Shown here: positions 8,737 to 56,199 of the stretch, in pieces | Layout: each line of letters begins with the position of its first letter | Numbering within the stretch: the first letter of the stretch is position 1 | Assembly: GCF_900142915.1 (NCBI RefSeq) | Contig: NZ_FRCM01000001.1 | Coordinates: forward strand, 682,001 to 746,000 | Length of the DNA stretch: 64,000 nucleotides | Origin: Mucilaginibacter sp. OK098 | GTDB lineage: Bacteria > Bacteroidota > Bacteroidia > Sphingobacteriales > Sphingobacteriaceae | Direction: 5' to 3' | Program-made: the position numbers and the translations under genes | The notes under the pieces: generated by a model | Told to the model about the DNA's origin: nothing | Databases searched by the model: none | The model's input: the letters and a program-made list of their open reading frames with translations, nothing else

Positions 8737-8738
8737 GT

Positions 8739-9785: not shown

Positions 9786-9786
9786 G

Positions 9787-10620: not shown

Positions 10621-10658
10621 GTCGGCTTGGCAGGAAGCTACCCCTGTTTATAGAAAAT

Positions 10659-10691: not shown

Positions 10692-10905
10692 GGGTGGATA
10701 CAGAAATTTTTTAGTTATTCTAAAGCAAAGGATTAAAGCATTAAGTTTATCTAAGAAAATGTTGCGATTATAGCTTGTAAGCCCCTGCGAATGAAACCCT
10801 ACTAAAATTGAGGTAAGCTAAAGTAAAAAGTTGACCCTTTACCTTAAGCAAAGGATAATTTATTAGATAAATGGCGGTTACTGCATCATTGAATTTAACA
10901 CCTGT

Positions 10906-12201: not shown

Positions 12202-12489
12202 GTTCGTTCTTAATATCAATGGTTTTGATATTTTAAAATCAAAAAAAGTCTATAATGGTCTGTAAAAATGACAAATGTTTAGTGATTGTAATTTCTCGTA
12301 TTTGTCATATGATTAAGCGAAATTGGCAATATGCTTGTAGCATATATTAATCTTATCCCTCAAAGAAAAATTTGGAAAGAAGCAATGGTGTGTTAAAGGT
12401 TTTTTTAGAATCTGCGAATTAAATATTTATAAAGAAAAGCTTTATAAAAACAAGCTTCTACTTATGCTTGCGAATGGATTTTAACTTAC

Positions 12490-13218: not shown

Positions 13219-13259
13219 TTATATAAATATATTTACAATAATAAGCATTTTGAAAATTA

Positions 13260-13380
13260 GTTGATTTGTTTGTACATTAAACGCAACTGTAACATTATTA
13301 CAAACCCTGCAAATAAACTTTAAATAATTGTTTTTAATTTATATGTTTGTACATTATAACATATATCGTATATGTGTTAA
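13260..13380. promoter_or_regulatory. gntR-manA divergent control region with TGTACA-type palindromes
   Basis: TGTACA occurs at 13271-13276 and 13348-13353, and ACATATA-TCG-TATATGT (13359-13375) is a perfect inverted repeat. TATGTTTG at 13342-13349 fits the Bacteroidota -7 box for manA and touches the second TGTACA. This is what a repressor site over a promoter would look like. The same core motif recurs at the susC promoter. Confidence 0.5.
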
Positions 13381-13447
13381 TTATTGCAAATTAGTATAAT
13401 GCAAAGTTTTTGCTTGCTAAATATACCCATACATTACTATAACAAAT

Positions 13448-15265: not shown

Positions 15266-15269
15266 CGCG

Positions 15270-16706
15270 ATGAGCACAGCAACAATAAAAACTTTAACAA
15301 AAAAGAGCAACACTTACCTGTACCTGGTTTGCCTGGTAGCGGCCCTTGGCGGGTTCCTATTCGGGTTTGATACAGCTGTAATTTCCGGCACAGTTAGCCT
15401 GGTAAAACACGATTTTAACCTTGATGCCAATTACGAAGGCTGGTTTGTAAGCTGTGCCTTACTGGGTTGTATTATAGGGGTAAGCATTTCTGGTAAACTA
15501 AGTGACAAATATGGTCGGAAAATAGTGCTGATCCTCTCCGCAGTTTTGTTTCTTGCTTCGGCATTGGGCTGTATGTTTTCCGGCTCGTTCACCGTATTGG
15601 TATTGTTCAGGCTGATTGGTGGTTTGGGGATCGGCGTAGCATCAATGGTATCGCCTTTATATATCTCTGAATTTTCACCTTCGCGTTTTCGCGGGATGAT
15701 GGTTTCGCTATACCAATTGGCTTTAACTATAGGAATAGTGCTTGCCTATTTCTCAAATGCTTATCTGCTTAACCACGCAGGTGGTTTCTTTGGCAGCGAT
15801 GGTATGAATAGGGTTTTTTCTACCGAAGTATGGCGGGCTATGCTTGGCCTTGGCGCTTTGCCTGCTGCTATATTCCTTATTTCATTATTCATGGTACCCG
15901 AATCACCAAGGTGGTTGCTGTTAAAGGGCGAAGAACAAAAAGCAAAAGACATTTTAATAAAGATTGACGGCGCTGATGCCGCAAAAAATGAAATAGCGGC
16001 CTTTAAAGCGTTAGGGGATGAGGATTCGCAAGGATCATTGAAAGAGTTATTTAAGCCGGTATATCACAAAGCCCTTTTGATTGGTTTGTTATTGCCATTT
16101 ATGTCGCAGGTATGTGGTATTAACGCGGTTATTTATTACGGGCCAAAAATACTGGAACAAGCGGGCTTTACACTCAATAATGCTTTGGGGGGCCAGGTAA
16201 CCATAGGGCTGGTTAATGTTGTGTTTACTTTTGTAGCCATTTTTACAATTGATAAATGGGGGCGCAGGCCGCTGTTGTTTGCCGGTATAGGTGGTGCCGT
16301 AATTGCGTTGATTGTCATCGGTGCGCTGTTTGCATTGGGCATCACATCTGGTCCGTGGATATTGATTTTCATTATAGCTTTTACTGCTTGCTTTTCTTTC
16401 TCATTCGGGCCGGTTTGCTGGGTGGTAGTAGGTGAAATATTTCCGAATGCCATCAGGGGGAAAGCCATGGCCCTGGCGACACTTTCATTATGGATAGGCA
16501 ATTTCTTGGTAGGGCAACTAACCCCGGTAATGCTGGAGGGGCTGGGCTCTTCATGGACATTCTGGCTATTTGCACTGTGTTGTTCACCGGCATTGTGGGT
16601 TACCTGGAAACTGATACCTGAAACCAAAGGTAAATCGCTGGAAATGATCGAAACCTTTTGGAAGACAGCTTATACCGATAATAAAAAAATAAGCAAAAGA
16701 CTTTAA
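15270..16706 (+). CDS. Sugar porter family MFS transporter
   Basis: This 478-residue, 12-helix permease is of the XylE/GlcP type. Hallmarks are GFDTAVISG in helix 1, DKYGRK after helix 2, PESPRWLL before the central loop, and PETKGKSLE at the C-terminus. It is in one operon with the mannose-6-phosphate isomerase (4-bp gap), so the cargo is probably mannose or a related hexose imported by proton symport. An intrinsic terminator follows at 16952. A truncated, diverged copy of its first 100 residues lies at 36796. Confidence 0.9.
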   Translation: MSTATIKTLTKKSNTYLYLVCLVAALGGFLFGFDTAVISGTVSLVKHDFNLDANYEGWFVSCALLGCIIGVSISGKLSDKYGRKIVLILSAVLFLASALGCMFSGSFTVLVLFRLIGGLGIGVASMVSPLYISEFSPSRFRGMMVSLYQLALTIGIVLAYFSNAYLLNHAGGFFGSDGMNRVFSTEVWRAMLGLGALPAAIFLISLFMVPESPRWLLLKGEEQKAKDILIKIDGADAAKNEIAAFKALGDEDSQGSLKELFKPVYHKALLIGLLLPFMSQVCGINAVIYYGPKILEQAGFTLNNALGGQVTIGLVNVVFTFVAIFTIDKWGRRPLLFAGIGGAVIALIVIGALFALGITSGPWILIFIIAFTACFSFSFGPVCWVVVGEIFPNAIRGKAMALATLSLWIGNFLVGQLTPVMLEGLGSSWTFWLFALCCSPALWVTWKLIPETKGKSLEMIETFWKTAYTDNKKISKRL

Positions 16707-16951
16707 AGTAAAATAATGATCATATATAAGTTCAATTTAAGGCGATCTGTCAGCATTCAAAATGCTGGGTACAGGCCTCAAACATGCAGCTTAATATACC
16801 GATAAAGATATGGCATACTATAATCAACTATCCATTTAAATCAATTGAAAATTACCTGTGAGGTTTTTCTAACAGAAATGGAAAAAATGTGGAATAGTGT
16901 TGCAGCCAAAAGTATTTCAGGGATGAGATCCTGAGGTTTAGTTGATTGGTA
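16707..16951. other. Intergenic region after the MFS gene
   Basis: No gene or clear motif is visible here before the terminator at 16952-16977. Beyond the terminator, 16978-17143 is AT-rich and presumably holds the promoter of the next gene. ATATGCCC occurs twice there, 16 bp apart. Confidence 0.3.
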
Positions 16952-16977
16952 GTCCCGGCTATGCCGGGACGTTTTTT
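16952..16977 (+). terminator. Intrinsic terminator of the manA-MFS operon
   Basis: GTCCCGGC (16952-16959), loop TAT and GCCGGGAC (16963-16970) form a perfect GC-rich stem followed by G and six T. This is a classic rho-independent terminator on the plus strand. Confidence 0.9.
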
Positions 16978-17143
16978 GAAGTGAAAACCGGGTAATGTTA
17001 ATAAATAGGCAATATCTATTTAAAAGGAAAACTGACCAAGCACCTTTAGACATAATTTATAAATTTTAGAACAATATATCATATAAAATATATATGCCCC
17101 TGATACATATGCCCGATTCTTTAATCCTGAAAATTATTTCATA

Positions 17144-19312
17144 ATGAAAAAACAAACTTATACCGCTTATTTCATTCTTATTTCTTCTATTCTCAGTGCA
17201 TTTTCAGCCTTTGCTTTAAAAAATCAACATAATACGGTTATCTCTGTTCCCCCTTCAAAGCGCGCTGTAGCGTTAGGTATCCCAACACTTGATAATTTGG
17301 CTGGCGATTGGATCCCGATGGCGCAGGTTGAAAATATGCCGGCTGTTCATAACTTCAATCATATGTTGGTGGTTAACCGCGATTTGACCTCCTATTTCTA
17401 TTATCCGGGTGGCATATATCCCTGGAAGAAAGGCCACCCCATAACTACATTGACCATTGATGGGCAGGAATATCCTGCGATGGAAACCAGGTGTTTTCCC
17501 TATAAAGCTCTCCGCCGAAACCAGTATTGCAATGGCACATCGGTAGAAACCGATACGCGCATGATCAATGAGTTAAGAAATGTAATGTGCCGGATCATTG
17601 CAACTAATACAACTATATTGCCGCGTCGCATCACCCTTGCACTCCATGTGCCGGGTAAACTTATGGCTGATGGTATTGGTGTTTCTAATAGCACACAGCG
17701 CCCAGGTGTGGTGTCCGTCGTACGTCCGGCACGCAAGCCGGATGCTGTATCTGTTGAAAAAGATACTGTTGTTTGGCGCTGGATGGTGGAACTCCCTAAA
17801 GGTGGTTCTACGCATATTGAATTTGCTGCTGGGGACGAAGCTTCTGAACAAAGTGCTCAAACCGATGCAAATGTTATCAAATGGGCTGCCGGGTTCAACT
17901 CTTATTTTGATGCTTGTAAAACAAACTGGGAGAATCGCTGGGCTGATGCTTTTACTCCCGGAAATAAGCATTTTTCCGGGCATCTACCCATTTTAAAGAG
18001 TAATGATGCGGCGCTGATGCGTAACTACTATGTGGGCGTATGGACAATGTTAGCTTTAGAACGTACCCAGTTTCCTGTCAATAAACGTTCTTTCATTACA
18101 AGTGGTGAGCGTGAAGATGGCACCCAGTTTTACTGGGATGCATCCATGCAGTCAACCGCATGGGCACTTCTGGAACCTGCCGGTATGAAGGCAACGCTGC
18201 GCCGCTGGTTGGTGCAGAACCCGCGGACTGGACAGGCCAGCGGATATGCGCTTGATTTGAGGAATGTTAAGGGATTTGATACGACTCATTACAATCGCAT
18301 CAATGGTTATGCCTTCAACGCATGCACTATTTTTAAAACGATTGACGAATATCTGCGTGTGACAAACGATCGTGCTTTTCTGGATGAAAAACTGGAAAAC
18401 GGCAAAAGCGTTATAGAAACCCTGGATGCGCTTGCTACTGATTGGGAAACCCTTCCAAAAGGGCATGATGGATTGGCCAATTACGGTGAGAATAACAACC
18501 TTCTTGAATGTGCACCGGCTTATATCAATTGCGTATCATCTTGTAACGCGCAGGATATTTGGATGATGCGGCAGACGGCCAAATGGTATTCGCTGCGTAA
18601 TAATAGTATGCGTGCTAAACAACTTGAGACAAAAGCTGCTGCTTTACTTCCCAAAGTAATGTCGCTTTACGAGCCGGGCGCCGGGGTTTGGAATGCCTGG
18701 CAGTTAAATGGCAAACGTGTGGAACTGCGTCACTGTGTAGACTTTATTTATACCGGTAACGCTTTGAAAAGAGATCTGTCGGGAAAGCAAAAGTCAGAGA
18801 TGGTCTCATTTGTTAAAAATGAACTGCTTACCCGTGATTGGATGCGTGCCATGAGTCTAAAGGATTCTGCAGCGGTGAATTCAGACCGGCCGGATCATGG
18901 ACCAATGGGAGCCTATGACGGTTGGGTTCCACTAACGGTTAATACCATGTGGAACCTGGGTGATCCCGAAGGCGCTTATAAATTCTATTGCAGTACGGTG
19001 GTGGTTACAAGCGAAGGCCCTTTTGCCCAGGCCCGTGAGTTTTTTGGCCCTAACCGTATGGAATATGATGCGCCCGTACGCATTGCAGCAAGGCAGGGTT
19101 GCATGAAGGAATGTATCAGTGGCGTGGCCTTTAGCGATGTTGTGATAACTACTTTCTTCGGCTTTGTTCCTGAAGCCGGTAATGGACGTATTTTGGCCGA
19201 CCCATCTACACCACGCCCTTTTTCGGGCGAGTTACGTAATGTCCATTTTGCCGGTAAGGAATTTACGCTTAAAGCAGGACACAAAGGCGTTAAAGTGATT
19301 TCGGAACATTGA
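17144..19312 (+). CDS. Secreted six-hairpin glycosidase-like protein
   Basis: The protein has 722 residues with a signal peptide (about 1-24, ...SAFSAFALK). The N-terminal third is a beta-rich domain and the rest looks like an (alpha/alpha)6 barrel: FYWDASMQSTAWALLEPAG, GYAFNACTIFKTIDEYLR, NNLLECAPAYINCVSS and PMGAYDGWVPLTVNTMWNLGD. This arrangement is found in glucosidase and alpha-L-rhamnosidase-like clans, but I cannot assign a family. It begins a plus-strand run ending in two GH38-type enzymes, so it probably trims a mannose-containing glycan. Confidence 0.6.
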   Translation: MKKQTYTAYFILISSILSAFSAFALKNQHNTVISVPPSKRAVALGIPTLDNLAGDWIPMAQVENMPAVHNFNHMLVVNRDLTSYFYYPGGIYPWKKGHPITTLTIDGQEYPAMETRCFPYKALRRNQYCNGTSVETDTRMINELRNVMCRIIATNTTILPRRITLALHVPGKLMADGIGVSNSTQRPGVVSVVRPARKPDAVSVEKDTVVWRWMVELPKGGSTHIEFAAGDEASEQSAQTDANVIKWAAGFNSYFDACKTNWENRWADAFTPGNKHFSGHLPILKSNDAALMRNYYVGVWTMLALERTQFPVNKRSFITSGEREDGTQFYWDASMQSTAWALLEPAGMKATLRRWLVQNPRTGQASGYALDLRNVKGFDTTHYNRINGYAFNACTIFKTIDEYLRVTNDRAFLDEKLENGKSVIETLDALATDWETLPKGHDGLANYGENNNLLECAPAYINCVSSCNAQDIWMMRQTAKWYSLRNNSMRAKQLETKAAALLPKVMSLYEPGAGVWNAWQLNGKRVELRHCVDFIYTGNALKRDLSGKQKSEMVSFVKNELLTRDWMRAMSLKDSAAVNSDRPDHGPMGAYDGWVPLTVNTMWNLGDPEGAYKFYCSTVVVTSEGPFAQAREFFGPNRMEYDAPVRIAARQGCMKECISGVAFSDVVITTFFGFVPEAGNGRILADPSTPRPFSGELRNVHFAGKEFTLKAGHKGVKVISEH

Positions 19313-19322
19313 AAAATCAAAA

Positions 19323-22300
19323 ATGAAAACATTAAATATTACCCTATCAATCAGTTTAGTTTTTGTGCTTATTGGCTTTAGTTGTTTAGCACAAAATACT
19401 ACGTTCAAAATAAGTAAGGATATTCGGGCAAGCGAAATTACCTCGTCGGCATCGAGCAGTTTCGGTCCAGACCAAAGTGTTAACCATTTAACAGACGGTT
19501 CTGGTATTCATAACAACCTGCATGATAATAACGGTAGCGCACTCACCATGTGGCATACAACGGAAAATCCTGTTGCCAGCATCCCTGCAAAAGGATTGCC
19601 TTTATGTAAGGCATGGGTGAGATTTGATTTTTCAACTCAAAAATCTTTTAATAAGATTTGGATATGGAACCATAATCAGGAGAACCTGACTAGCCGTGGA
19701 TTTCGTTTGATAAAAGTGTACGGAACAACAAATGAAATTGATTGGTTTGAGTTAACTACACTGGAATTACCTGATGCTAAAAACCTGAATGGAAAAGCAT
19801 CAGAAATAGTCGTTAATGAAAAAAAGGCATTAAAGTCAGTAATTATTGCTGCCGAATCTAATTGGGGAGGCAATGTTTATGGCCTGAGCGGAGTGAAATT
19901 TATAGCTGAGCTTGAAGTTAATGAGTCAGCATTACCATTTCCCAATGATTTTGAATGTGCACCAACAAGCATATACCGTTATTGTAAAGATGGCAAGCCA
20001 GGAAGAGAAGTAGTGCTCACCTTTAAGGGGGCTAATTTATATCAACCTTCAGAAATAGAAGTTACAGCAGATAGCCGGACAATAACCACCTCTGTTCCAT
20101 TTAGGAAGGATGGATTAGAAACGGCAACAATTATACTTCCATCTGGTGTTGGTGTTGAGAAAGAAATACAAATATTCGTTTCATTAAAAGCGGGAAGTAA
20201 AATCATAAGAAAATCATTTGTATTGCCTAAGCAAAGACAATGGACAGTATACATTTACCCACATGCACATGTTGATATAGGGTACACAAATACCCAGGCA
20301 AATGTCGAAATTATCCATAAGCGCAATCTTATTAACGGAATGAAGCTGGCAAAGGAAACGGCAAACTATCCGGAGGGGGCACGATATATTTGGAACCCCG
20401 AAGTTATGTGGCCTGTTGAGCGTTATTTAAAAAATGCGACACCAACCGAGAGGGAAGAATTATTGGATGCTATCAGAAAGGGATATATCCATCTTGATGC
20501 AGGGTATATTAATGATAATACGAGTGTTACGGCCGATGAGGAGTTTCCCGGGTTTTTTGGAGAAGCAAAGCGTCTGGAAAAGTTAACAGGTGTCCCGGTA
20601 AGTACGATCGACCAGACAGATGTTCCCGGTATGTCATGGGGAATCGTTCCGATGGCTGCTCAATTTGGAATTAAATACGTTTTCGCCCCGTTCAACGGTT
20701 CAGACCGCACCGGGTTAGCCGACAAATTCAATTTCAAACCATTCTGGTGGATTGGGCAGGATGGCGTTTCAAAAGTACTATTTCTTCAACCCGGCGATTA
20801 TACTCCCGGAGCAAGAGAAAAAGGATTTAAATACTGGCCTTTAATGGCTGGCCAAAAAGATCCAAATAAATTACTGCAAATCGTAAAAACAGATCATCCC
20901 CGTGAAAATTTCATCGATGGTTATTTATGGGAAAAACTTAAGCAGTTGGAGGGTAATAGCAGTTATCCCTACGATTTATTTCCAATGACATGGGCAATGG
21001 CAGATAATACACCAATAGATGCTGACCTGCCCGATGCAGTTAAAAGCTGGAACGAAGAATATGCATTTCCGCACCTGGTTATTGCAAGTTCAACAGATAT
21101 CATGTCGGCATTTGAGAAGAAATACGGAGATATAATCCCCTCATTCAGAGGTGATTTTACGGAATATTGGACAGATGGTTTGGGGGCTGCAGCTAAAGAG
21201 ACAGCTATGAACCGGAAGTCCAAAGAGCGCTTAATTCAAACAGACGTTCTTTGGTCAATGTTGCATCCGCGCGAAAAAGCACCCCGCCCAGAAATGAATG
21301 AAGCGTGGCGCAATGTACTCATGGGATCAGAACATACCTGGTGCTATATGAATCCTTACCAGGCCGATATGCAGGATGAAATATGGGGGGTAAAGCAAAA
21401 TTTCTTTAATACCGCTGAAAAAAGCAGCATTCAACTTCTTGCCAATGCGCTTAGCGCTGTATCGACTGATAAGTCAAATATTTTCTGTGTTTTTAACACT
21501 TTGTCCTGGGCACGCAATGGGTTGATCACAATTTCAAATGATCAAAGTGAAGGAGTTTTATCCGTACGGGATGAAAACAATAAACTGGTTGAGTCACAAC
21601 GGCTAAGTACAGGCGAATTAGTGTTTTTAGCATCTGATGTTCCCGCATTAGGGACAAAAAACTATACCCTGAGTACTGAAAGCGGGGGTAAATCTGGTGT
21701 GAAGATGGCTAAAGGGAATATCCTGGATAATGGGTTGGTTAAAATTTTGATTGACCCTGTTACTGGGGATATTACCAGTTTAAAAGATAAAACAGGTGTT
21801 GAATTTGTGAACCCCGGTGATGCCTGTAACATGAACAGTTTTAGGTATCTTCTTGGAAGCGGAAAACCGGCCTCAAGTGGCCCGCAATATGCGGCAAATG
21901 TAACAACACCCTTCAGTACCACTCTTCAGAAGCCTGTACATGCAACAGGACCAACAGAAGTACAAACTTTAATTAAAGAGAATGGGCCACTTCTTGCCGC
22001 TATTGAGGTGACTTCAAAAGCCGATGGTTGCAATAAGCTGACCCGTGAAGTTCGTGTTATAGCTGGCATGCCGGAAATTGAAATAAATAATTTAGTAGAT
22101 AAAATAGCCATAACGGAAAAGGAAGGGATTCATTTTGGGTTTTCATTTAACATTCCAAACGGACGAACACGTATTGATGTCCCATGGAGCGTGGTGGAAA
22201 TAGATGCAGATCAACTTCCTGCTGCAAACCGAAATTGGATTTGTTTTCAGCGCTGGCTTGATATATCAAATGAAGGCAAGGGGATAACCTGGTGCTCATT

Positions 22301-47072: not shown

Positions 47073-47229
47073 TGTTGTGTTAGTTTTAATTGTTTTCATA
47101 ACAAAGAAAAGCAGGGGCAGTGACAACCCTATGTCAGTAGAGAGAAATATGTTTTGAGAAATAAAATGACCTAACAATAAAAAAGTCACCAACTATTTCA
47201 GTTAAGGCTTTGTGGGAAACCTGTGTGCT

Positions 47230-47260
47230 CCTTCAAAATATCTTCAAGATATTTTGAAGG
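47230..47260. terminator. Perfect 15-bp hairpin
   Basis: CCTTCAAAATATCTT (47230-47244), centre C, and AAGATATTTTGAAGG (47246-47260) form a perfect inverted repeat. It lies between the DinB gene and the methyltransferase stop, both minus strand, so it may end the methyltransferase message. It is one of several such near-perfect palindromes here. Confidence 0.5.
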
Positions 47261-47307
47261 TTGTTAAAGAAATATTGGCTTCAACATTGCGCCAAAATAA
47301 CTAGATG

Positions 47308-48252
47308 CTATTTTTTAACCATCCAAAATGCACCTGGTTCACGTCCTGACTGTTTAGCAAAAATTGGGCACTTATCCGAAAACTCTTTATTATAATTATG
47401 TGCTAAATAATTCAAAGAACCTATTATTTTATATTTTTCGTTAAAGGTTAAAAACGCTTCCAATAAATATTGTTCATTCCATAAAACATGATTATAAACC
47501 CACTCATCCAGGTAGTCCTTAGGCATAAAAATATCATGTATATGAACAATAACACCAGGGTTTAAAATGGGCAAAATTTCCAGGTATTCAAAAAGCACAT
47601 CACCTTGTGGCCTGATAATGTGTGAAGAATCAATAAATAATATATCATTGTGACCAAGAGTTTGAAAAAAAGATTTATTTACAGTTTCTACCCGCTTTCT
47701 AACCACTTCTACACCTAATTTCTCAAGCCCGGAAAATTCATAAGGCTCTATACAAGCATGATTGCATTGATAACTGGCGTCATCGATTTTATTTTGTGAT
47801 ATAGCATTTTGCGCCATAAATGTAGAGTGTCCGCTTCCTATTTCAATTACGCGTTTCGGTTTAAAATATCTAATAATATTGTATAAATATTCAGCATCAC
47901 CTGATGCATATGAACTATTATTATAAAAGTATGTCAATTCTCCACTTTTCTCAAGTGGAAATTTATTTAACTCATCATTATAGTTGAATTTATCTAATAA
48001 CTCTAACTGCTCTTCAGTATTAAAATCAATTCCTGGTAGTTCTCTATCACTTCTTAACGATTTTATCAGCTGTTTTTTAGGGTTTATTAAAGGCTGATAG
48101 TACTGATCATGAATAGGTAAAATACCTGTTGTCATAAAAATTTTCTCTTCAAAATACCCGATTCCGACTGATCGAATAAATTTTAACCATAAAGCTGAAA
48201 GAAAAGTAAAAGGCAGGCCAAGGTGTGATAAAAATTTAAAGGCTTTTTTCAT
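47308..48252 (-). CDS. Class I SAM-dependent methyltransferase-like protein
   Basis: The protein has 314 residues. KRVIEIGSGHSTFMAQNAI is the SAM-binding motif I and HNDILFIDSSHIIRPQGD is the acidic loop of Methyltransf_24-type enzymes. LNPGVIVHIHDIFMPKDY follows. A basic, hydrophobic N-terminus (FKFLSHLGLPFTFLSALWLKF) may attach it to the membrane. It could modify a surface polysaccharide or lipid. Confidence 0.75.
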   Translation of the reverse strand: MKKAFKFLSHLGLPFTFLSALWLKFIRSVGIGYFEEKIFMTTGILPIHDQYYQPLINPKKQLIKSLRSDRELPGIDFNTEEQLELLDKFNYNDELNKFPLEKSGELTYFYNNSSYASGDAEYLYNIIRYFKPKRVIEIGSGHSTFMAQNAISQNKIDDASYQCNHACIEPYEFSGLEKLGVEVVRKRVETVNKSFFQTLGHNDILFIDSSHIIRPQGDVLFEYLEILPILNPGVIVHIHDIFMPKDYLDEWVYNHVLWNEQYLLEAFLTFNEKYKIIGSLNYLAHNYNKEFSDKCPIFAKQSGREPGAFWMVKK

Positions 48253-48412: not shown

Positions 48413-48498
48413 TAAATTGGGCTTTCTTATTTTGTTTGGAACCTTGCAGGAGTTAGAACACCTTGAAGAAATTTTATTGCTCATCAAAATATACTTAA
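48413..48498 (+). repeat. Dispersed repeat, copy C (partial)
   Basis: TTAGAACACCTTGAAGAAAT and the following A/T-rich part match the right half of copies A (48949-49064) and B (54519-54636). The left half is more diverged. It lies just upstream of the NTF2-like gene, in the in-frame region rejected as an N-terminal extension. Confidence 0.55.
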
Positions 48499-48509
48499 CA
48501 AATAAAAAC

Positions 48510-48926
48510 ATGAACGAAAAGACCAAATCAACAGAGCGTTCCATGGAAGAAGAACAAATTCGTGAAGCCCTGGATGCGCACTGGCAGGCGTCGGCAGCCG
48601 GTGATGAAAACGTGGAACATGATATTTACGATGATGATGCCATTTGTGATTATCCACAGTCGGGCGAGAGAATCCTCGGACGAAGCAATTTACAGGCCTT
48701 GCGGAGTCATCATCCGGGTAAGCCGTCGGGTTTCAATATCAAACGAATTCTCGGAAAAGGTGATCTATGGATCACGGAATACACAATCACCTATCAGGAG
48801 CAACCAGCATACACAGTGAGTATTATGGAGTTTAGCTACGGTAAGGTGGTGCACGAGACACAGTATTTCGCAGATCCCTTTGTGGCGCCGGCCTGGCGAA
48901 GTCAATGGGTTCAGCAGATCGTGTGA
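48510..48926 (+). CDS. NTF2/SnoaL-like domain protein
   Basis: The protein has 138 residues from the ATG at 48510. A longer in-frame extension to 48369 would encode the dispersed repeat. It is a cone-shaped NTF2-like fold: EALDAHWQASAAGDENVEHDIYDDDAICDYPQSGERILGRSNLQALRSHHP. Such proteins are small-molecule isomerases, hydrolases or binding proteins. The gene is flanked by repeat copies C and A. Confidence 0.78.
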   Translation: MNEKTKSTERSMEEEQIREALDAHWQASAAGDENVEHDIYDDDAICDYPQSGERILGRSNLQALRSHHPGKPSGFNIKRILGKGDLWITEYTITYQEQPAYTVSIMEFSYGKVVHETQYFADPFVAPAWRSQWVQQIV

Positions 48927-48948
48927 TGCAGTATTTAGCCTATGGCCG

Positions 48949-49064
48949 GTGTTTTCACTGCACCATTTTAAACTTAAAAACTCAGCCAAATTGACCGGGT
49001 TTGATTCGGTGCAGAACCTATGCATGAATTAGAATACATTGGATGTATTTTACTGATAATTAAG
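48949..49064 (+). repeat. Dispersed ~115-bp repeat, copy A
   Basis: This runs from TTTTCACTGCA through CAGCCAAATTGACCGGGTTT and TTAGAATAC to AATTAAG, collinear with copy B at 54519-54636. It lies between the NTF2-like gene and chrA. Confidence 0.75.
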
Positions 49065-49112
49065 TCGATATATCGGTATGGAAAATGAAATTATTTTAGG
49101 TGCTTTTCGGGA

Positions 49113-50270
49113 TTATAGAACTTTTATCAGGGCTCCGATGATAGCGGCAATTCCAATGATGTAAGGTTCTTGTAGTTTTTTGACATAGATAAGTGCCAGC
49201 ACCGTGACTATACCAATTAATGCTGTAGGAATATCTATTATAGAACGCAACCCAATAATAATAACTGAGCCAACCAAGGCCCCGATAACTGATGCGGTAA
49301 TACCCTCTACAAATGCTTTGATGCTGTTATTTTTAGCGATCTTTTTAAAGGATGGCGCTAAGGCCGTGGTAAACAAATAACAAGGCAGAAAAGTAGCTAT
49401 TGCAGCGACAGCAGCGCCGGGAAAGCCCGCCACTAAATAACCGATAAAGCCAACGGTGATGACCACCGGCCCCGGCGTAATCATGGCCACTGCTACCGCA
49501 TCCACAAACTGCTTTTCGTTCAGCCAGCCAAACTCCTTAACTACCCCGCCATGCAGGAAAGGCACAATAGCCAACCCGCTGCCGAATACAAATGCCCCGG
49601 CTTTTAAAAAGAACCAGCCGATCTCCTGCAAGGTCTTGCCGTTATAATTCCAGAAACCAACACTCAACAAAATTTCGGCAGGAACAATTGTTGGTTTTTT
49701 TATCCATTGAGGCGGTGCTTTGATCAACATATATAAAATACCACAAGACAGAAATAATAAAATTTCTTCTTTTTGGGTAATGACTGTGATGGCGATCCCA
49801 ACGCTATAAAACAGCCATAACAACCATTTGGATTTCATAGCAGACAGTTTAAACTTACTGATGGATTTTACGGTCAGTTTGTAGGCACTCATCCCGATAA
49901 TACCAATCACAGCGGCACCTACACCATAGAATACTGCCTGCATCCAGGCCAGCCCGCCGTAAAGCTGATAAGCCATCCCTAATAAGACCACCATGATAAA
50001 GGACGGCAATACAAAAGCCAGCCCCGCTAGTGTCGCACCGATCAGCCTATAATGTACAAAGCCGATATAAATACCCAATTGCGCGGCCAGAGGCCCCGGT
50101 GCGAGTTGCGCCAATGCCAAACCCTCTTTGTATTCTTCATCGGTCAGCCAGCCTTTATCTTCCACCAGGTCACGGTACATATAACCCACCAAAGCAACCG
50201 GCCCGCCAAAACCCCAGGCGCCGAGTTTCAGGAAATACATTACCAGGTCTTTGAGACGGTAACGTTCCAT
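49113..50270 (-). CDS. chrA: Chromate efflux transporter ChrA (CHR family)
   Basis: The protein has 385 residues from the ATG at 50270. A GTG at 50273 is an alternative. It holds two homologous CHR halves. The first is LGAWGFGGPVALVGYM...LAQLAPGPLAAQLGIYIG and the second is LKAGAFVFGSGLAIVPFLHGGVV...VAMITPGPVVITVGFIGY, with about ten membrane helices. It exports chromate. Its start overlaps the DUF1259 stop by one base. Together with the upstream ChrB-AraC gene this forms a chromate-resistance cluster. Confidence 0.92.
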   Translation of the reverse strand: MERYRLKDLVMYFLKLGAWGFGGPVALVGYMYRDLVEDKGWLTDEEYKEGLALAQLAPGPLAAQLGIYIGFVHYRLIGATLAGLAFVLPSFIMVVLLGMAYQLYGGLAWMQAVFYGVGAAVIGIIGMSAYKLTVKSISKFKLSAMKSKWLLWLFYSVGIAITVITQKEEILLFLSCGILYMLIKAPPQWIKKPTIVPAEILLSVGFWNYNGKTLQEIGWFFLKAGAFVFGSGLAIVPFLHGGVVKEFGWLNEKQFVDAVAVAMITPGPVVITVGFIGYLVAGFPGAAVAAIATFLPCYLFTTALAPSFKKIAKNNSIKAFVEGITASVIGALVGSVIIIGLRSIIDIPTALIGIVTVLALIYVKKLQEPYIIGIAAIIGALIKVL

Positions 50271-51253
50271 CACATTTTCATTTTGTTTATTGGCTCTTTG
50301 CCCAATACATCCAACGCAGCGCGGAAGCCCTGGGCTAAGTCAACTGCTTTTCCGCGTCCATAATAATGCAGAAAGATCATGTGAGGGTCATCGCCGAGCA
50401 TGTGGTTGTGTACGGCCACTATCTCCAAGTTATGCGCCCTTAAAGTTTTGATCACGCTATTCACCTCGCTTTGCAGCATGGCAATATCACCCGCGATATG
50501 CGCATCGTCCTGCTTGCCTGCAAAAGATGCCCAAGTGTTTAACCCTATATTGGTAGTCATTTCCACACCCATTGTAATTACTTTCAGGTCAGCCCGGCCA
50601 ATGGTGTATTTGTAGGTCGGGCCGTTTACTGTGCCTGTATATTTTACAATGGCATCGAGTGCGGGCAGATCAAAGTTTTCCTTTCCTGTAATTGCTGGCG
50701 GTGCAGATTGTGCAGGCTGGTTGGCTGGGAATATTTTGCTGTCGCGAATTGTGTCGGCATATTTCTTAGCTAATTCTTCAACGGTTCCCATACCATGAAT
50801 GTGCATATAGAATATGCGTGGCTCTTCATAAAAGAAGTGGTTATGTATAGCGGCTATCTCCAAGCCGTTGGCGTGCGCTGCAGATATTAGCGGATTTACT
50901 TCTTCCATTAGCAATACATTATCGCTCATAGCCATCGCAGATTTGCCGTCCAAGGTCTTTTTGAACGAAACCCAACCACCAAAGCCAAAGGGTATAGGTA
51001 CCGGCTCTCCTTTGATCTTCATTTTTAGATCGTTCCTGGGCAATGGTGTGGTATAAACAGATTCAGCATCTTTATAGCTACCTTTCTTGCCTAAAGCGGC
51101 GTCAATGGCGGCCATTTCATCAGCCGTTATAGCCGGAGTTTTGGCGATTAATAATGAAGCCGCCTGTAATTTTTGTAAGGGTAGTATTAGGGTAGTACCC
51201 AATACTACGGTTGCCTGCAAAGCTTGCCTGCGGGTGAATTTGTGTTTTTCCAT
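50270..51253 (-). CDS. Exported DUF1259 (LppY/LpqO-like) protein
   Basis: The protein has 327 residues from the ATG at 51253 (MEKHKFTRRQALQATVVLGTTL, a Tat-type leader). A TTG 27 bp upstream is less likely. Two similar DUF1259 units are visible: LEIAAIHNHFFYEEPRIFYMHIHGMG (first) and LEIVAVHNHMLGDDPHMIFLHYYGRG (second). The repeated HNH and H-x-H clusters could bind metal. Genes of this type are commonly found with chrA, suggesting a periplasmic role in chromate handling. Confidence 0.85.
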   Translation of the reverse strand: MEKHKFTRRQALQATVVLGTTLILPLQKLQAASLLIAKTPAITADEMAAIDAALGKKGSYKDAESVYTTPLPRNDLKMKIKGEPVPIPFGFGGWVSFKKTLDGKSAMAMSDNVLLMEEVNPLISAAHANGLEIAAIHNHFFYEEPRIFYMHIHGMGTVEELAKKYADTIRDSKIFPANQPAQSAPPAITGKENFDLPALDAIVKYTGTVNGPTYKYTIGRADLKVITMGVEMTTNIGLNTWASFAGKQDDAHIAGDIAMLQSEVNSVIKTLRAHNLEIVAVHNHMLGDDPHMIFLHYYGRGKAVDLAQGFRAALDVLGKEPINKMKM

Positions 51254-51316
51254 AATGATAGTTTGCGTTAACGAAAGCAATACTACCCATATACAAATTC
51301 CTAAAATTGTATGGAT

Positions 51317-52174
51317 TTAACTATTTGTATCCTTTTTACTTTTCAAGCTGTTTTTTTTATAAATCGACGGGTTTTGCCCGGTCTGTTTTTTAAAGATCCG
51401 GTTAAAGTGGCTTTGATCGGAAAATCCTGTGAGGTAGGCGATCTCCGTTAATGAGTAGGTAGTGCTATCTATCAGGTTGATAGCTTTTTCTATTCGTAGT
51501 TTGCGGATATAATCTCCAAAGGATAAATTTTCAAAGTATTTTGAAAACTCTCTTGAAAGATAAGCTGGGTTGATCTCGAGCTCACTCGATACTTGTTGCA
51601 GGCTCAAAGTAATGTTCGTATCTAATTGATCCTGGATCATCTCCTTGAGTTCTCTTGCCCATTCCGGCGCTTTTTTAGCGCTTCCCTGCTTCAAATACTT
51701 ATGATAAACTTCTAATAGTAATTGTTCGACAGGGGCTTGTGTATGTTTTTGCTGATGCAGGTATTTTGCCCAGGTATAAAGCCCGTCGTAAACTTTCATA
51801 CCCAATTCCAGCAGTTCGTGGTCATCCGGGATATTCTTTGATAGCCCTAAAAATATAGCTGATAAGCCTGAAGCCTGGGGTGCAAAATCATGACGGTCAG
51901 TGTCTGCCCCCCTGATAACAGCCGCCATCCTGTCAAGCGCAACGTCTTTGATATGGTGCTTTTTAAGAAAATAATCAAACGTGCATTGGTCTTCATAATG
52001 TGTGTATTCAACTCCCGGAAGATCAAATGGAACTGCATTTATTTCTGTTGCCTTTGTTATAACCTGGTCAAAAGGGACATAGATAATTTCGGCGTCGGCA
52101 TCAATAAACCGTTTAATTAGCCAGGGACAAGCGATACGATCAATCTTCGGATGTTCACGGGTGATCCATTTCAT
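51317..52174 (-). CDS. ChrB-domain protein fused to an AraC-type DNA-binding domain
   Basis: The protein has 285 residues from the ATG at 52174. Residues 1-about 130 match the C-terminal domain of ChrB (KWITREHPKIDRIACPWLIKRFID..., CTFDYFLKKH, DRHDFAPQASGL), a chromate sensor or reductase module. From about 185 a double helix-turn-helix of AraC type follows (LSLQQVSSELEINPAYLSREFSKYF, YSLTEIAYLTGFSDQSHFNRIFKKQTGQNPSIYKK). It probably senses chromate and activates the downstream DUF1259-chrA genes. Confidence 0.85.
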   Translation of the reverse strand: MKWITREHPKIDRIACPWLIKRFIDADAEIIYVPFDQVITKATEINAVPFDLPGVEYTHYEDQCTFDYFLKKHHIKDVALDRMAAVIRGADTDRHDFAPQASGLSAIFLGLSKNIPDDHELLELGMKVYDGLYTWAKYLHQQKHTQAPVEQLLLEVYHKYLKQGSAKKAPEWARELKEMIQDQLDTNITLSLQQVSSELEINPAYLSREFSKYFENLSFGDYIRKLRIEKAINLIDSTTYSLTEIAYLTGFSDQSHFNRIFKKQTGQNPSIYKKNSLKSKKDTNS

Positions 52175-52262
52175 TTTGTAAATATAAAGACACTTTGATA
52201 TATCATTACTACGCTTAATGCAGGCTAATCCTGTCATCAAGTGCTACAACGATTCCGGCTCT

Positions 52263-54287
52263 CTACGCTTTTACTTTTAACAGACTTGCATTGATAGCAA
52301 CCACCACAGTACTCACTGTCATCAATACAGCCCCAGTTGCCGGGCTTAATATAATCCCCTGATTATACAGCACGCCTGCCGCAAGTGGTAAAGCAATTAC
52401 ATTATAACCAGTGGCCCAGACCAGGTTTTGGATCATCTTTCGGTAGGTCGCTTTGCCAAATAAGATCAGGCTAACAATATCCTTAGGGTTACTATTCACC
52501 AATACTATACCCGCCGTTTCTGCTGCTATGTCGCTTCCCGAACCCACCGCGATACCAATATCCGCTTGTGCTAATGCAGGCGCGTCGTTCACACCATCCC
52601 CCGTCATAGCCACAAACTCACCCTGTGTTTGCAGTTCTTTGATCTTCTCCAGCTTTTGATGTGGCAATACCTCGGCAATGAAACTATCCATACCTAACGT
52701 TTTGCTCACGCTGGCCGCAACTTTATGGTTATCACCCGTAAGCAGTATAGATTTGATATTTTCTTCTTTCAGGGTTTTTATTGCTTCTGCTGATTCGGGT
52801 CTTAGCTTATCTGACAAAGCAATGTATCCGGCTAATTCTCCATCGATAATCACAAAAACAATCGTTTCTGTATCATTGGTGGTAAAGCCATCTGGAACAG
52901 TTAATTTATTTTCCTTTAAATAACCCGGACTCACTACCAAGATCTTTTTACCCTCCACAATGGCTTCAACACCCCGACCTGTGATTGCCTTAAAGTTTTC
53001 AGCTTTTGGAATAGTCAACTTTAAGTCTTTTACTTTTTGCAGGATGCCTGTCGCAATTGGATGCTCAGATTCTTGTTCTAATGCTGATGTCAAGCGGATG
53101 AGCTCCTTTTCATTCATCCCTTTTTGTAATGAGATCACTTTGGATACTTCAAACCTACCCACGGTAAGTGTGCCCGTTTTATCGAATACAACGGTGGTGA
53201 TTTTTCTTGCATTCTCAAATGCTGTGCGGTTCTTTATCAATAGGCCATGTTTCGCAGATAAGGCTGTTGACCTGGCAACAACCAACGGCACAGCCAGGCC
53301 CAAAGCATGAGGACAGCAAATAACAATAACTGTCACCATTCTTTCCATTGCGAACGCTAAAGGCTGGCCTGTTAAATACCAATATAAAAATGTGCCGATT
53401 CCTGTTACTAAAGCAATTATAGTTAGCCACCTTGCCGCTGTATCTGCTAAAAGTTGGGTTTGTGATTTTGATTTTTGCGCATCATCCACAAGTTTAACTA
53501 CCTGAGACAGGTAAGAGTCTTTGGCCGCATGGGATACAGTAACTTTAAATGAGCCATTACCGTTAATTGAGCCGGCGATTACCTTGTCACCTTTTACTTT
53601 TTGTACCGGTTTTGATTCCCCGGTCAGCATCGATTCATTAACGTAACTTTCGCCCTCTAATATGATCCCGTCTGCCGCGACTTTTTCGCCGGGCTTAACC
53701 AGGATAATATCGTTCTTTTTCAGGGTATCCGTTTTTACATCATGGATCATGTCTTTCATAACCATGTGCGCATCAGCGGGCATTAACTGAACCAACAACT
53801 CCAGTTCATTTGAAGCCCCCATCACAGACCGCATTTCTATCCAATGCCCCAACAGCATGATCAGGATAAGTGTATCCAGTTCCCAAAAGAAATCCATTCC
53901 TTTTAAGCCAAAGACAATGGCTACACTGTAACTATAAGCAACACTTATCGCAAAACCGATCAGGAACATCATGCCAGGGTTCTTTGTCTTTACTTCGCTG
54001 GCCAACCCTGTTAAAAATGGCCAGCCGCCATAAACAAACACCACCGACGATAAGGCAAACAAAATATAGGATGAGCCTGTAAATTGCCAGCTTACGCCCA
54101 TAAAATGCTGGATCATGGTTGATAACAGCATAATTGGAATAGTAAGCACCAATACAACATAAAACCGTTTTTTAAAATCAGCGACCATCATCGTATGGTG
54201 GTCATGCTCTGACATGCCCATATGCGGGTTATGGCCTTTATGCATATTACTGTGATCAATGCCTGCGTGCATTTTATCCATATCCAT
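52263..54287 (-). CDS. copB: CopB-type copper-translocating P-type ATPase
   Basis: The protein has 674 residues. The N-terminus is rich in His and Met (MHAGIDHSNMHKGHNPHMGMSEHDHH), as in CopB, with no CxxC metal-binding domain. The membrane motif is CPH (325-327), typical of the CopB subgroup that exports Cu or Ag. TGES (222-225), DKTGT with the phosphorylated Asp369, and MTGDGVND are intact. It lies 89 bp upstream of the ChrB-AraC gene on the same strand. Confidence 0.9.
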   Translation of the reverse strand: MDMDKMHAGIDHSNMHKGHNPHMGMSEHDHHTMMVADFKKRFYVVLVLTIPIMLLSTMIQHFMGVSWQFTGSSYILFALSSVVFVYGGWPFLTGLASEVKTKNPGMMFLIGFAISVAYSYSVAIVFGLKGMDFFWELDTLILIMLLGHWIEMRSVMGASNELELLVQLMPADAHMVMKDMIHDVKTDTLKKNDIILVKPGEKVAADGIILEGESYVNESMLTGESKPVQKVKGDKVIAGSINGNGSFKVTVSHAAKDSYLSQVVKLVDDAQKSKSQTQLLADTAARWLTIIALVTGIGTFLYWYLTGQPLAFAMERMVTVIVICCPHALGLAVPLVVARSTALSAKHGLLIKNRTAFENARKITTVVFDKTGTLTVGRFEVSKVISLQKGMNEKELIRLTSALEQESEHPIATGILQKVKDLKLTIPKAENFKAITGRGVEAIVEGKKILVVSPGYLKENKLTVPDGFTTNDTETIVFVIIDGELAGYIALSDKLRPESAEAIKTLKEENIKSILLTGDNHKVAASVSKTLGMDSFIAEVLPHQKLEKIKELQTQGEFVAMTGDGVNDAPALAQADIGIAVGSGSDIAAETAGIVLVNSNPKDIVSLILFGKATYRKMIQNLVWATGYNVIALPLAAGVLYNQGIILSPATGAVLMTVSTVVVAINASLLKVKA

Positions 54288-54703
54288 TTTAAGTGAGTTA
54301 AAACAATATTTGTTTCAGGATCTTATTTTTGTGCTTTTGCAAAGTTGCAAATTGTTGGATACCAATTAAATGATGCTAATCATATTGTTAATTGTTCCCA
54401 AATACATTAATCATGTTATAATTGATTAACAATGAAATAATAAAGGCGTCCATTTGTTTTATACTCCAAAAGAAATAGACATTTAAAATAGACCAGTAAG
54501 GGCATTTAGTCTATTGTTGGTATTTTCACCGCAGTATTTTTAAACTAAAACCCCAGCCAAATTTGACCGGGTTTAATTTTGTACGGAAGAAGGGGCGATG
54601 TTAGAATACCTTGAAGATATTTTTAACATAATTAAGTATATTGTGGGGGTGTAATGTTCTATCTAATGCATCATAATTAAATAGCCTAATAAAAATTCAT
54701 ACT
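54288..54703. other. Intergenic region holding repeat copy B
   Basis: About 415 bp between copB and the DUF4375 gene, which point away from each other, so both promoters should lie here. Apart from repeat copy B (54519-54636) I see no gene. The copB leader side is AT-rich. Confidence 0.4.
54519..54636 (+). repeat. Dispersed ~115-bp repeat, copy B
   Basis: Collinear with copy A (48949-49064): TTTTCACCGCA, then CCAGCCAAATTTGACCGGGT, TTAGAATACCTTGAAGA and AATTAAG. The right half could encode LEYLEDIFNIIKYIV after an in-frame stop. Copies A and B bracket the chrA-copB block. Confidence 0.75.
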
Positions 54704-55315
54704 ATGTTTACATCATTGTTCAAATGGCTTGGTCTTTTCCAAAAGAAGAATGATCAATCAAAAAACGATTTAACTGAACAGATAACCCAACCTGTAGAAA
54801 GCTTCAAAAATAGAAACATATACAAAAAGCTAACTTCTGAAATTATTAATAATAGTAATGACGACCAGTTACTTCAAATTGTATTCGATAATTTATCAGG
54901 GAAACTCTCTGATGATTACACAGAAGAGTATGAAGCAGTATTAACTTTTTCAAAAGCACAGCAAGCAATTTACATTATTTGGTGTTTAGAGGCAGAAGTA
55001 AATAATGGAGGCTTTAATCAATATTATTTTAACTCAAGTGGACAATTTGCCTCATTAACACCTGATGCCTTGCAACTTGTCGGGGCTCATAAATTTTCTG
55101 CTCTGACAGCTATGGCAAATAATATTTATGAAACTGAATATTCAAATATTACAAAGTATCAGGATGGAACTCTGGAGGGTTTCAGCAAATCGTATAATGA
55201 TAATCCATTAAATGAATTTGATAATGAATTCTATGAGCTTTATAAAGTTGAGAATTTACAACAATTGCAGATTGACTTCATTAGAAGGAATTTATTCAAT
55301 TTTATTGAAGAATAA
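54704..55315 (+). CDS. DUF4375 domain protein
   Basis: The protein has 203 residues. The domain (about 60-195) shows AQQAIYIIWCLEAEVNNGGFNQYYFNSSGQFASLTPDALQLVGA, typical of DUF4375 (DMP19-like). The function is unknown. It is cytosolic, preceded by a charged, Lys/Asn-rich linker. It ends at a terminator shared with the convergent tRNA-Leu. Confidence 0.82.
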   Translation: MFTSLFKWLGLFQKKNDQSKNDLTEQITQPVESFKNRNIYKKLTSEIINNSNDDQLLQIVFDNLSGKLSDDYTEEYEAVLTFSKAQQAIYIIWCLEAEVNNGGFNQYYFNSSGQFASLTPDALQLVGAHKFSALTAMANNIYETEYSNITKYQDGTLEGFSKSYNDNPLNEFDNEFYELYKVENLQQLQIDFIRRNLFNFIEE

Positions 55316-55350
55316 AAAAGCCGCTAACTTATTCAGTTAACGGCTTTTTT
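55314..55350. terminator. Bidirectional terminator between DUF4375 gene and tRNA-Leu
   Basis: AAAAAAGCCG...TAACT pairs with AGTTA...CGGCTTTTTT with a single internal C-A mismatch. A-run and T-run ends allow use from both sides. Confidence 0.88.
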
Positions 55351-55351
55351 G

Positions 55352-55433
55352 TGCGGAAGAAGGGACTCGAACCCCCACGCCGTGAAGCGCCAGATCCTAA
55401 GTCTGGTGCGGCTACCAATTACGCCACTTCCGC
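55352..55433 (-). tRNA. tRNA-Leu (anticodon TAG)
   Basis: An 82-nt class II cloverleaf on the minus strand. The acceptor GCGGAAG pairs with CTTCCGC plus A73, the anticodon stem CCAGA/TCTGG has loop CTTAGGA (anticodon TAG), a long variable arm is present, and the T-arm contains GGTTCGAGTCC. CCA is not encoded. Confidence 0.94.
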
Positions 55434-56081: not shown

Positions 56082-56199
56082 CGCAGGCCTTCGACCTGCG
56101 CTATTATATGTTGCCCCTTCAGGGCTTAATGTGTTGGTTTTACTACAATGTTAAAGGCCTGAAAGGTCGTAATGCGTTAGCACAGGTCGAAGGCCTGCG
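56082..56199. repeat. Long inverted repeat with GGCCTTCGACCTG arms
   Basis: CGCAGGCCTTCGACCTG (56082-56098) and its exact reverse complement (56183-56199) enclose 84 bp. That segment itself contains the partly complementary CCCCTTCAGGGCTT and AAAGGCCTGAAAGG. The whole could fold into a cruciform or long structured RNA. Confidence 0.8.

What the first reader, a model, noticed from the sequence alone, without database searches (positions are those of the whole stretch)
48413..54636. Unrecognised ~115-bp repeat in three same-orientation copies bracketing a metal-resistance block
Copies A (48949-49064) and B (54519-54636) are collinear over about 115 bp with strong patches (CAGCCAAATTTGACCGGGT, TTAGAATAC, AATTAAG). 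Copy C (48413-48498) shares the right half. C and A flank the NTF2-like gene; A and B flank chrA, DUF1259, ChrB-AraC and copB. The right ends could encode similar peptides (LEYLEDIFNIIKYIV, LEHLEEILLLIKIYL), with a stop in the middle of A and B, so this may be a decayed mobile element or a recurring gene-end module. Same-orientation copies would allow loss or amplification of the block by recombination.
Basis: partly seen in the sequence, partly recalled or inferred. Interest (0 to 1): 0.72.

Follow-up and report, generated by a model that had tools for sequence, protein, structure and literature searches.

The report
Split-recombinase scars stacked at a tRNA
The repeats beside the metal-resistance genes match the tail end of a gene for a DNA-inserting enzyme and are stacked behind one tRNA gene; in relatives the whole enzyme gene runs straight into tRNA genes and carries a predicted stop signal for the tRNA inside its own code, so new genes were likely added here one block at a time without harming the tRNA.

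Summary
The repeat is real: A and B are 73% identical over 134 nt (E 3e-13 across the genome), C is weaker, and there is a fourth copy, D (47212-47276). Its left part is a terminator plus the 3' end of tRNA-Leu(UAG), whose gene is at 55351-55433. Its right part is the last ~20 codons (LEHLEDILLIIK) of a large serine recombinase (LSR). In Sphingobacteriaceae relatives 38 of 43 distinct full-length LSR genes end antisense inside a tRNA or tmRNA, and the missing tail can lie kilobases away at the element's other end. So attP sits inside the LSR gene and integration likely splits it. Next to the tRNA the LSR coding sequence holds a predicted terminator for the tRNA (34 of 38 beyond synonymous shuffles; controls 6 of 195). 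In the genus, 50 of 54 tails with any tRNA in reach face Leu(UAG) or Ser tRNAs; 31 more had none in reach. The window's blocks (methyltransferase; SnoaL-like; chrA-DUF1259-chrB/araC-P-ATPase; DMP19) are read as stacked insertions; no LSR of this family was found in its genome. Closest known: Dehalococcoides ssrA islands and CIME accretion. Recombinase activity, and how LSR-less blocks move, are untested.

The parts
47212..47276 (+). Copy D: fourth, decayed scar (terminator-like sequence to its left, tRNA-end remnant, LSR tail with a frame slip)
   Evidence: E 5e-4 with R1; 1e-5 with an independent model
47308..48252 (-). Cargo of unit D-C: methyltransferase (Methyltransf_24)
48434..48500 (+). 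Copy C: tRNA-end remnant plus LSR tail (LQELEHLEEILLLIKIYL)
48510..48926 (+). Cargo of unit C-A: SnoaL/NTF2-like gene
   Evidence: SnoaL_2 E 3e-4, below the curated cut-off
48933..49008 (.). Left half of copy A: old tRNA-Leu(UAG) 3' flank with terminator hairpin, displaced; a like sequence lies directly on the tRNA in L050-L052
49009..49088 (+). Right half of copy A: tRNA-end remnant plus LSR tail (ELEYIGCILLIIKSIYRYGK, stop)
49113..50273 (-). Cargo of unit A-B: chromate transporter ChrA
50270..51280 (-). Cargo of unit A-B: DUF1259 protein
51317..52240 (-). Cargo of unit A-B: ChrB_C-AraC fusion regulator
52263..54287 (-). Cargo of unit A-B: P-type (E1-E2) ATPase; absent from the same block in L049
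54504..54580 (.). Left half of copy B: tRNA-Leu flank with terminator (CCCGGTCAAATTTGGCTGGG on the tRNA strand)
54581..54654 (+). Right half of copy B: tRNA-end remnant (CGGAAGAAGGG) plus LSR tail (LEYLEDIFNIIKYIVGV, stop)
54704..55315 (+). Cargo of newest unit: DMP19-like gene
55314..55350 (-). Present terminator-like hairpin of the tRNA (GCCGTTAACT..AGTTAGCGGC then T-run on the tRNA strand)
   Evidence: I17; not listed by the simple scan, perhaps because the A/T flanks extend the stem
55351..55433 (-). tRNA-Leu(UAG), intact: the anchor (attB side)

Best explanation
The repeats are junctions at the 3' end of tRNA-Leu(UAG): each joins a displaced tRNA 3' end and terminator to the last ~20 codons of a large serine recombinase (LSR) gene, and each was likely left when an LSR element inserted there. 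SHOWN by sequence: in relatives the LSR gene ends antisense inside a tRNA/tmRNA; its C-terminal tail is found at the far end of the element, or still joined to the body in unsplit copies; and the LSR coding sequence next to the tRNA holds a hairpin plus T-run oriented to terminate the tRNA. INFERRED: attP lies inside the LSR gene (a tRNA 3'-end mimic ~25-30 codons before its stop); recombination with the tRNA 3' end splits the gene, leaving the tail behind the old terminator and fusing the body to the tRNA, so the tRNA stays intact and gets a new terminator. Repeated insertion at the same tRNA stacks blocks, the newest next to the tRNA. Afterwards the LSR body is lost, or LSR-less blocks are moved in trans, while a terminator is kept, giving the window's order D-methyltransferase-C-SnoaL-A-chrA/DUF1259/chrB-araC/P-ATPase-B-DMP19-tRNA.
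For: Empty sites: in L050, L051 and L052 the sequence left of copy A runs straight into intact tRNA-Leu(UAG), so A marks an insertion. In close relative L049 the chrA block starts at the same scar but after another block. Tail identity: unsplit LSR C-termini contain the tail (L209/L231, L256, L105); tail columns vary like codons (14 Ser-type rows, positions 1/2/3 = 0.33/0.14/0.59). LSR family: PF00239 and PF07508 in 4 of 4, PF13408 in 3 of 4; matches solved A118 integrase, E 2.4e-7. 38 of 43 distinct full-length LSRs end antisense in a tRNA (33) or tmRNA (5), one of them in tRNA-Leu(UAG), L297; one more stops 55 nt short of a tRNA. Of 85 tails examined, 54 had a tRNA in reach and 50 of those face Leu(UAG) or Ser tRNAs; 47 of 47 within 10 kb do. 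Of the 10 tails with E<=1.3e-5, 8 lie upstream of an LSR on the same contig and strand, 5-97 kb away (G387, G162, G351, G380, G202, G389, G023, G203; LSR places). Terminators: 34 of 38 with z below -2 against synonymous shuffles; repeat run 33 of 38 against 6 of 195 windows elsewhere in the genes. Same layout in the window's genome at Ser(GGA), Ser(UGA), Ser(GCU).
Against: The window's genome has no match to this LSR family at E 1e-8 or 1e-20, and no LSR body trace is seen in the window, so the link there rests on tails and position only. 31 of 85 tails had no tRNA in the 0-38 kb searched, and 4 of 54 first met another tRNA, over 12 kb away. Scar cores mostly match the tRNA imperfectly. Four full-length LSRs have no tRNA/tmRNA found (L262, L291, L295, L303). 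Two of the 10 best tails are not paired (G354, G391's best); of the 8 pairs, the G162 LSR has a stop and the G351 LSR is cut short with no tRNA found. Four of 38 terminators are weak (L259, L304, L305, L310), and the simple terminator scan of the window finds no more sites than shuffles (11 against 8.1, sd 2.6). The 60 nt left of the terminator shared by A and B is not explained by simple insertion. No circle, activity or transcript was observed.
Confidence: 0.86

Rival explanations
1. Ordinary tRNA-targeted genomic islands of tyrosine integrases; the repeats are their att direct repeats and the peptide likeness is chance.
For: tRNA-Leu is a classic target (recalled); a tyrosine-integrase element with a 17-nt tRNA repeat does occur at tRNA-Ser(GCU) in L207, and plain tRNA-Leu 3' fragments of about 25-64 nt occur in L055, L056, L058, L059, L060, L070.
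Against: The window's genome has three Phage_integrase matches, all outside the window. The tail is codon-periodic and is part of unsplit LSR genes.
Confidence: 0.04
2. The copies are a dispersed terminator/gene-end module duplicated by homologous recombination, not insertion scars.
For: A and B share 60 nt upstream of the terminator that are not known recombinase sequence; terminators recur among loci.
Against: The right halves belong to another gene, point to the tRNA and start at the insertion junction.
Confidence: 0.05
3. Same elements, different history: each window block is a whole LSR element that decayed in place (CIME-type), rather than a small LSR-less cassette mobilised in trans.
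For: Broken LSRs next to tRNAs occur (L247, L266; truncated L264); decay then accretion is described for ICE/IME tandems (PMC5704250, passages read).
Against: The C-A block is only 575 bp with one gene and keeps no LSR body trace; the chrA block keeps its exact left end in a different context in L049.
Confidence: 0.5

Closest known systems
Dehalococcoides ssrA genomic islands with serine recombinase DsiB (PMC3146451; passages plus section 11 read)
   Same: Serine recombinase ~540 aa; its 3' end overlaps the RNA-gene att site; tandem islands stacked downstream of one RNA gene with fragments between them; the authors suggested DsiB might be fully functional only on the circle or next to an island holding the 'requisite 3' gene fragment'.
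   Different: Target is tmRNA, in Dehalococcoides; no conserved tail or in-gene terminator is described in the passages read. Here the 3' fragment is identified, many tRNA isoacceptors (and tmRNA) are targets, and a predicted terminator is encoded inside the recombinase gene.
SSV-type 'suicidal' integrases of archaea (PMC8371274, passages read)
   Same: Attachment site inside the recombinase's own gene; gene split on integration.
   Different: Those are tyrosine recombinases, split so that the catalytic part is separated; the review says such recombinases are found exclusively in archaea. Here it is a bacterial serine recombinase losing only its C-terminal tail.
CIME accretion at tRNA genes (PMC5704250, passages read)
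   Same: Elements without integrase, bounded by att sites, stacked by site-specific integration.
   Different: Described there for ICE/IME relatives; here units can be a single gene and the junctions carry a recombinase-gene tail.
Islander tDNA islands (PMC4383910, passages read)
   Same: Element restores the tRNA and leaves a displaced fragment.

Membership tests
Large serine recombinase (LSR) | Resolvase (PF00239), Recombinase (PF07508) and zinc-ribbon (PF13408) domains in ~500 aa | tested here: met
   four relatives' LSRs, PF00239 and PF07508 in 4 of 4; PF13408 in 3 of 4, above its cut-off in 1. The window itself holds only tails.
Large serine recombinase (LSR) | Recombination activity, catalytic serine | not tested
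   no experiment; residues not inspected
Dehalococcoides ssrA-GI (DsiB) | Serine recombinase gene overlapping att at its 3' end against an RNA gene, tandem islands | tested here: met
   (tmRNA in 5, tRNA in 33 of 43 distinct full-length LSRs); stacked tails in window, L049, L062, L107
Dehalococcoides ssrA-GI (DsiB) | Conserved six-gene integration module with DsiA | not tested
   modules around LSRs were not annotated
SSV-type suicidal integrase | att site within the recombinase gene, gene split on integration | tested here: met
   split and unsplit forms; inferred from sequence only
SSV-type suicidal integrase | Tyrosine recombinase | tested here: not met
   serine recombinase domains
CIME | att-bounded unit without its own recombinase | tested here: met
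   window units
CIME | Mobilised in cis with an ICE/IME | not testable with these tools
   needs transfer assays
Integron cassette array | IntI integrase and attC sites | tested here: not met
   no Phage_integrase match in the window; the sites are tRNA ends plus an LSR tail. attC itself was compared by eye only
Tyrosine-integrase tRNA island | Integrase gene and perfect tRNA 3' repeat | tested here: not met
   no integrase match in the window and no further tRNA-Leu 3' repeat listed there

The most novel reading that the evidence does not exclude
A bacterial family of tRNA-targeting serine integrases that recombine inside their own gene: integration swaps off the C-terminal tail (a built-in direction switch), hands the tRNA a terminator written into the recombinase's own codons, and, when elements stack, rebuilds a chimeric recombinase at each junction that mobilises recombinase-less single-gene cassettes. 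Tails and tRNA genes together form an integron-like gene-accumulation system anchored at Leu and Ser tRNAs.
Probability: 0.42. Interest if true: 0.86.

Novelty: new variant of a known kind. Interest (0 to 1): 0.72.

Why it matters
A 2014 paper states that serine integrases are not known to target tRNA genes (PMC4383910), and a 2021 review that self-splitting recombinases are archaeal only (PMC8371274). A split-on-integration serine integrase with an in-gene tRNA terminator would explain how elements can keep landing on essential tRNA genes without harm, gives a sequence tag (the tail) for finding stacked, recombinase-less gene blocks, and makes testable the 2011 question of whether a serine recombinase needs its displaced 3' fragment. 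It also accounts for the metal-resistance block here. tRNA-directed serine integrases could become insertion tools.

Tried and rejected
Rfam: nothing in the repeat at gathering scores. Small-peptide gene or leader: rejected because the same peptide is an LSR C-terminus. Integron attC, Xer/IMEX-type site, group II intron start (GTGCG) and REP-type palindrome were considered by eye from the sequence and dropped once the LSR appeared; they rest on recall. Tyrosine integrase in the units: none in the window; among the other loci held, a search with a few integrase queries hit L134, L136, L138, L147, L207 and the query loci. Viral contigs: 0 hits to a degenerate tail pattern; named genomes: 4 hits, all Mucilaginibacter; plasmids: 2 weak, unrelated hits. 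Class-wide peptide search at E<=0.01: only the window's own genome of 395, so that search is insensitive. L043/L072 match is phosphoglycerate kinase by eye, a chance look-alike. A 562-aa frame in G066 (E 0.47) was taken as chance. Among 120 database relatives my pattern called 1 tail-like (P0049), 47 tRNA-antisense-like and 72 other, many of which end just at the core. The 30-97 kb elements could not be fetched whole, so ICE or prophage nature is unknown.

Literature: nine searches answered. Apart from PMC3146451, no listed title or abstract named an LSR split by integration at an RNA gene in bacteria; subscription papers are not held, so this is not proof of absence. PMC10083194: a find gave 0 uses of 'tRNA'. 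PMC13023037 (passages) describes displacement of a tRNA terminator by ICEs. PMC12424338: passages read.

Dropped rows: one search used 85 hits (those with E up to 9.6e-7), typed by hand; the longer list of weaker hits was not used. Searches gave 60 LSR loci; 59 had an LSR frame, 48 were full length, 43 distinct. One search tested 38 of 39 distinct segments (L315 dropped for a stop codon).
Full report
WHAT WAS CHECKED. Copies A and B are alike far beyond chance: 73% over 134 nt, E 3.2e-13, with the next match in the 7.2-Mb genome at E 0.28; 0 of 1000 shuffles reach the A-B score. C shares the right half. A fourth copy, D, lies at 47212-47276. With a model built from 31 arms, excluding the window and its nearest relatives, B, C, A and D score E 2.6e-10, 1.8e-7, 8.8e-6 and 1.0e-5 and nothing else in the window falls below 0.05.

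LEFT HALF. A search of 149 relatives found matches in 24, the window's own genome included. Aligned, the left half of A and B is the 3' flank of tRNA-Leu(UAG): a terminator hairpin (AAACCCGGTCAAATTTGGCTGGGTTT on the tRNA strand) followed by the tRNA 3' end, read antisense (GTGCGGAAGAAGGG). The window's own tRNA-Leu(UAG) is at 55351-55433, with a different hairpin next to it. In L050, L051 and L052 the SnoaL-like gene and this terminator run directly into an intact tRNA; in the window a like terminator is followed by copy A and 6.3 kb of other genes before the tRNA. So copy A is an insertion junction at the tRNA 3' end. Close relative L049 has scar-SnoaL-scar-1144-aa gene-scar-chrA-DUF1259-AraC-tRNA: the chrA block begins at the same scar but behind another block, and the 20 kb held lack the P-ATPase and DMP19.

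RIGHT HALF. The right half (TTAGAACACCTTGAAGATATTTTATTGATAATCAA) recurs in relatives. A model from 14 copies at the tRNA-Leu locus found it in 74 of 399 family genomes at E<=0.01, where many of the weakest outside the genus are likely chance; a broader 36-copy model found it in 55 of 149 genus genomes at E<=0.001. Of 85 hits (E up to 9.6e-7), 54 have a tRNA in the DNA held downstream; 50 of these are Leu(UAG) (27), Ser-UGA (8), Ser-GCU (7), Ser-GGA (7) or Ser-CGA (1), 50 of 50 with the tRNA 3' end facing the arm; the four others (Met twice, Cys, Asn) are over 12 kb away; 31 had none in the 0-38 kb searched, several at contig ends. The window's genome has the same layout at Ser(GGA), Ser(UGA) and Ser(GCU).

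WHAT THE RIGHT HALF IS. It varies like codons and in most copies reads as a C-terminal peptide with a stop soon after. The open-frame column led to G461, where the peptide ends a longer frame with a coiled-coil-like stretch and FRTPW..N and EQP motifs (no Pfam hit for that fragment). Searching with it found matches in 66 of 301 family genomes, many in open frames over 500 aa; four of those examined carry Resolvase and Recombinase domains, three of four also a zinc ribbon: large serine recombinases, related to solved A118 integrase. Database relatives include proteins named recombinase family protein in Mucilaginibacter, Pedobacter, Sphingobacterium and Chitinophaga; one, P0049, keeps a contiguous LLEHLQGLF tail.

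THE SPLIT. These genes end inside a tRNA read backwards: for example ...KGLLFVEQPSADSDRIPCC-AEEGTRTPTPRGARS, the last part encoded antisense in tRNA-Leu(UAG) (L297/L318). The loci give 59 LSR frames, 48 full length, 43 distinct; 38 of the 43 end antisense in a tRNA (33) or tmRNA (5), one more (L315) stops 55 nt before a tRNA, and four have none. The RNA genes are Ser, Leu, Met, Glu, His, Arg, Asp, Pro and tmRNA. In one search, run on 24 genomes with LSRs, 10 tails have E<=1.3e-5; 8 of them lie upstream of an LSR on the same contig and strand: G387 44.5 kb, G162 5.4, G351 9, G380 31, G202 54, G389 97, G023 54, G203 53 (LSR places). Of these, the G162 LSR has a stop and the G351 LSR is cut short with no tRNA found. 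The other two (G354, and the best of G391) are unpaired. Further same-strand pairs are G029 (tail E 1e-12), G804, and, with weak tails, G391, G363 and G428. Unsplit body-plus-tail forms occur in G461, G363 and G431, as expected for an unintegrated attP or for the junction of two stacked elements.

THE TERMINATOR. Just before the tRNA, LSR codons such as KGLLEIEQP spell GGGTTGCTCGAAATCGAGCAACCC (L254); on the tRNA strand this is a hairpin followed by T's. Folding the 75 nt next to the RNA gene in 38 distinct loci against 300 synonymous-codon shuffles gave median z -3.4, 34 of 38 below -2, 29 of 38 at rank 3 or better of 300; the weakest were L259, L304, L305 and L310. A repeat with 100 shuffles gave 33 of 38, against 6 of 195 windows at five positions elsewhere in the same genes; a hairpin with T-run was seen in 32 of 38 against 7 of 195. 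More distant LSRs use other codons for their hairpin (tmRNA, Asp, His and Met loci), which suggests selection for the terminator and not for the peptide.

HOW IT LIKELY WORKS. attP is inside the 3' end of the LSR gene, where the codons mimic a tRNA 3' end. Recombination with the tRNA leaves the old terminator plus the tail at the far end and joins the LSR body, with its hidden terminator, to the tRNA. The next element inserts between. In the window four such events are visible as tails, and no LSR body is found. Either the LSR bodies decayed, or the blocks were moved by an LSR acting from elsewhere; the 575-bp SnoaL block and the relocated chrA block favour the second, but this is open. The tail may control direction, as McMurdie et al. 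speculated for DsiB (PMC3146451, section read).

NOT EXPLAINED. B's left flank shares 60 nt with the SnoaL-side flank of A, so the A-B block arrived with, or later gained, that older tRNA flank. The boundary between AraC (52240) and the P-ATPase shows no scar. The consensus terminator scan of the window finds no more sites than shuffles, though it lists the hairpins of A and B.

TAXON. G431 contig C1 and NZ_JACHBY010000001.1 (Mucilaginibacter sp. X5P1) have the same length, 1,479,737, and G431 is listed as the window's genus, so the window is inferred to be Mucilaginibacter.

The LSR count was 44 of 48 loci with duplicates; recounted as 38 of 43 distinct. Pairing is now given as 8 of 10.

Noticed in passing
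L319 (G162:C97:9000-17500), 1062-7204: A 6-kb tail-to-LSR element at tRNA-Ser(GGA) carries what looks like a CBASS-type set (patatin-like 346 aa, nucleotidyltransferase-like 331 aa, 584-aa and JAB-like 152-aa genes; names by eye, no call); its LSR has a stop.
   Followed up: partly
L207 (G428:C29), 14342-19428: A tyrosine-integrase-like (405 aa) element with a 17-nt tRNA-Ser(GCU) 3' repeat sits between the tRNA and an older serine-recombinase tail: two recombinase classes seem to use the same tRNA.
   Followed up: partly
L055, L056, L058, L059, L060, L070: Plain tRNA-Leu(UAG) 3' fragments of about 25-64 nt without the tail, perhaps from other insertion types at the same hotspot.
   Followed up: no
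L296, L301, L302, L304-L306: LSRs of the same wider family end in the tmRNA gene (ssrA), as in Dehalococcoides; in L301 and L304-L306 the hairpin sits almost at the RNA end.
   Followed up: partly
L106 (G431:C1:756000-775999), 7130-17887: A kdp potassium-transport operon (by eye) lies between two tails in the same orientation, 10.7 kb apart; similar genes are near the tail in L109.
   Followed up: no
window 56082-56126: Acido-Lenti-1 RNA match just above its gathering score (37.6 against 37), near the tRNA-Leu locus.
   Followed up: no
window 3336-3423: TPP riboswitch (72.2 bits).
   Followed up: no
L049 10345-13779, L059 10581-14204, L067 3272-6895: A 1144-1207-aa gene, membrane-sensor-like by eye, recurs near the tRNA-Leu locus as cargo.
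   Followed up: no
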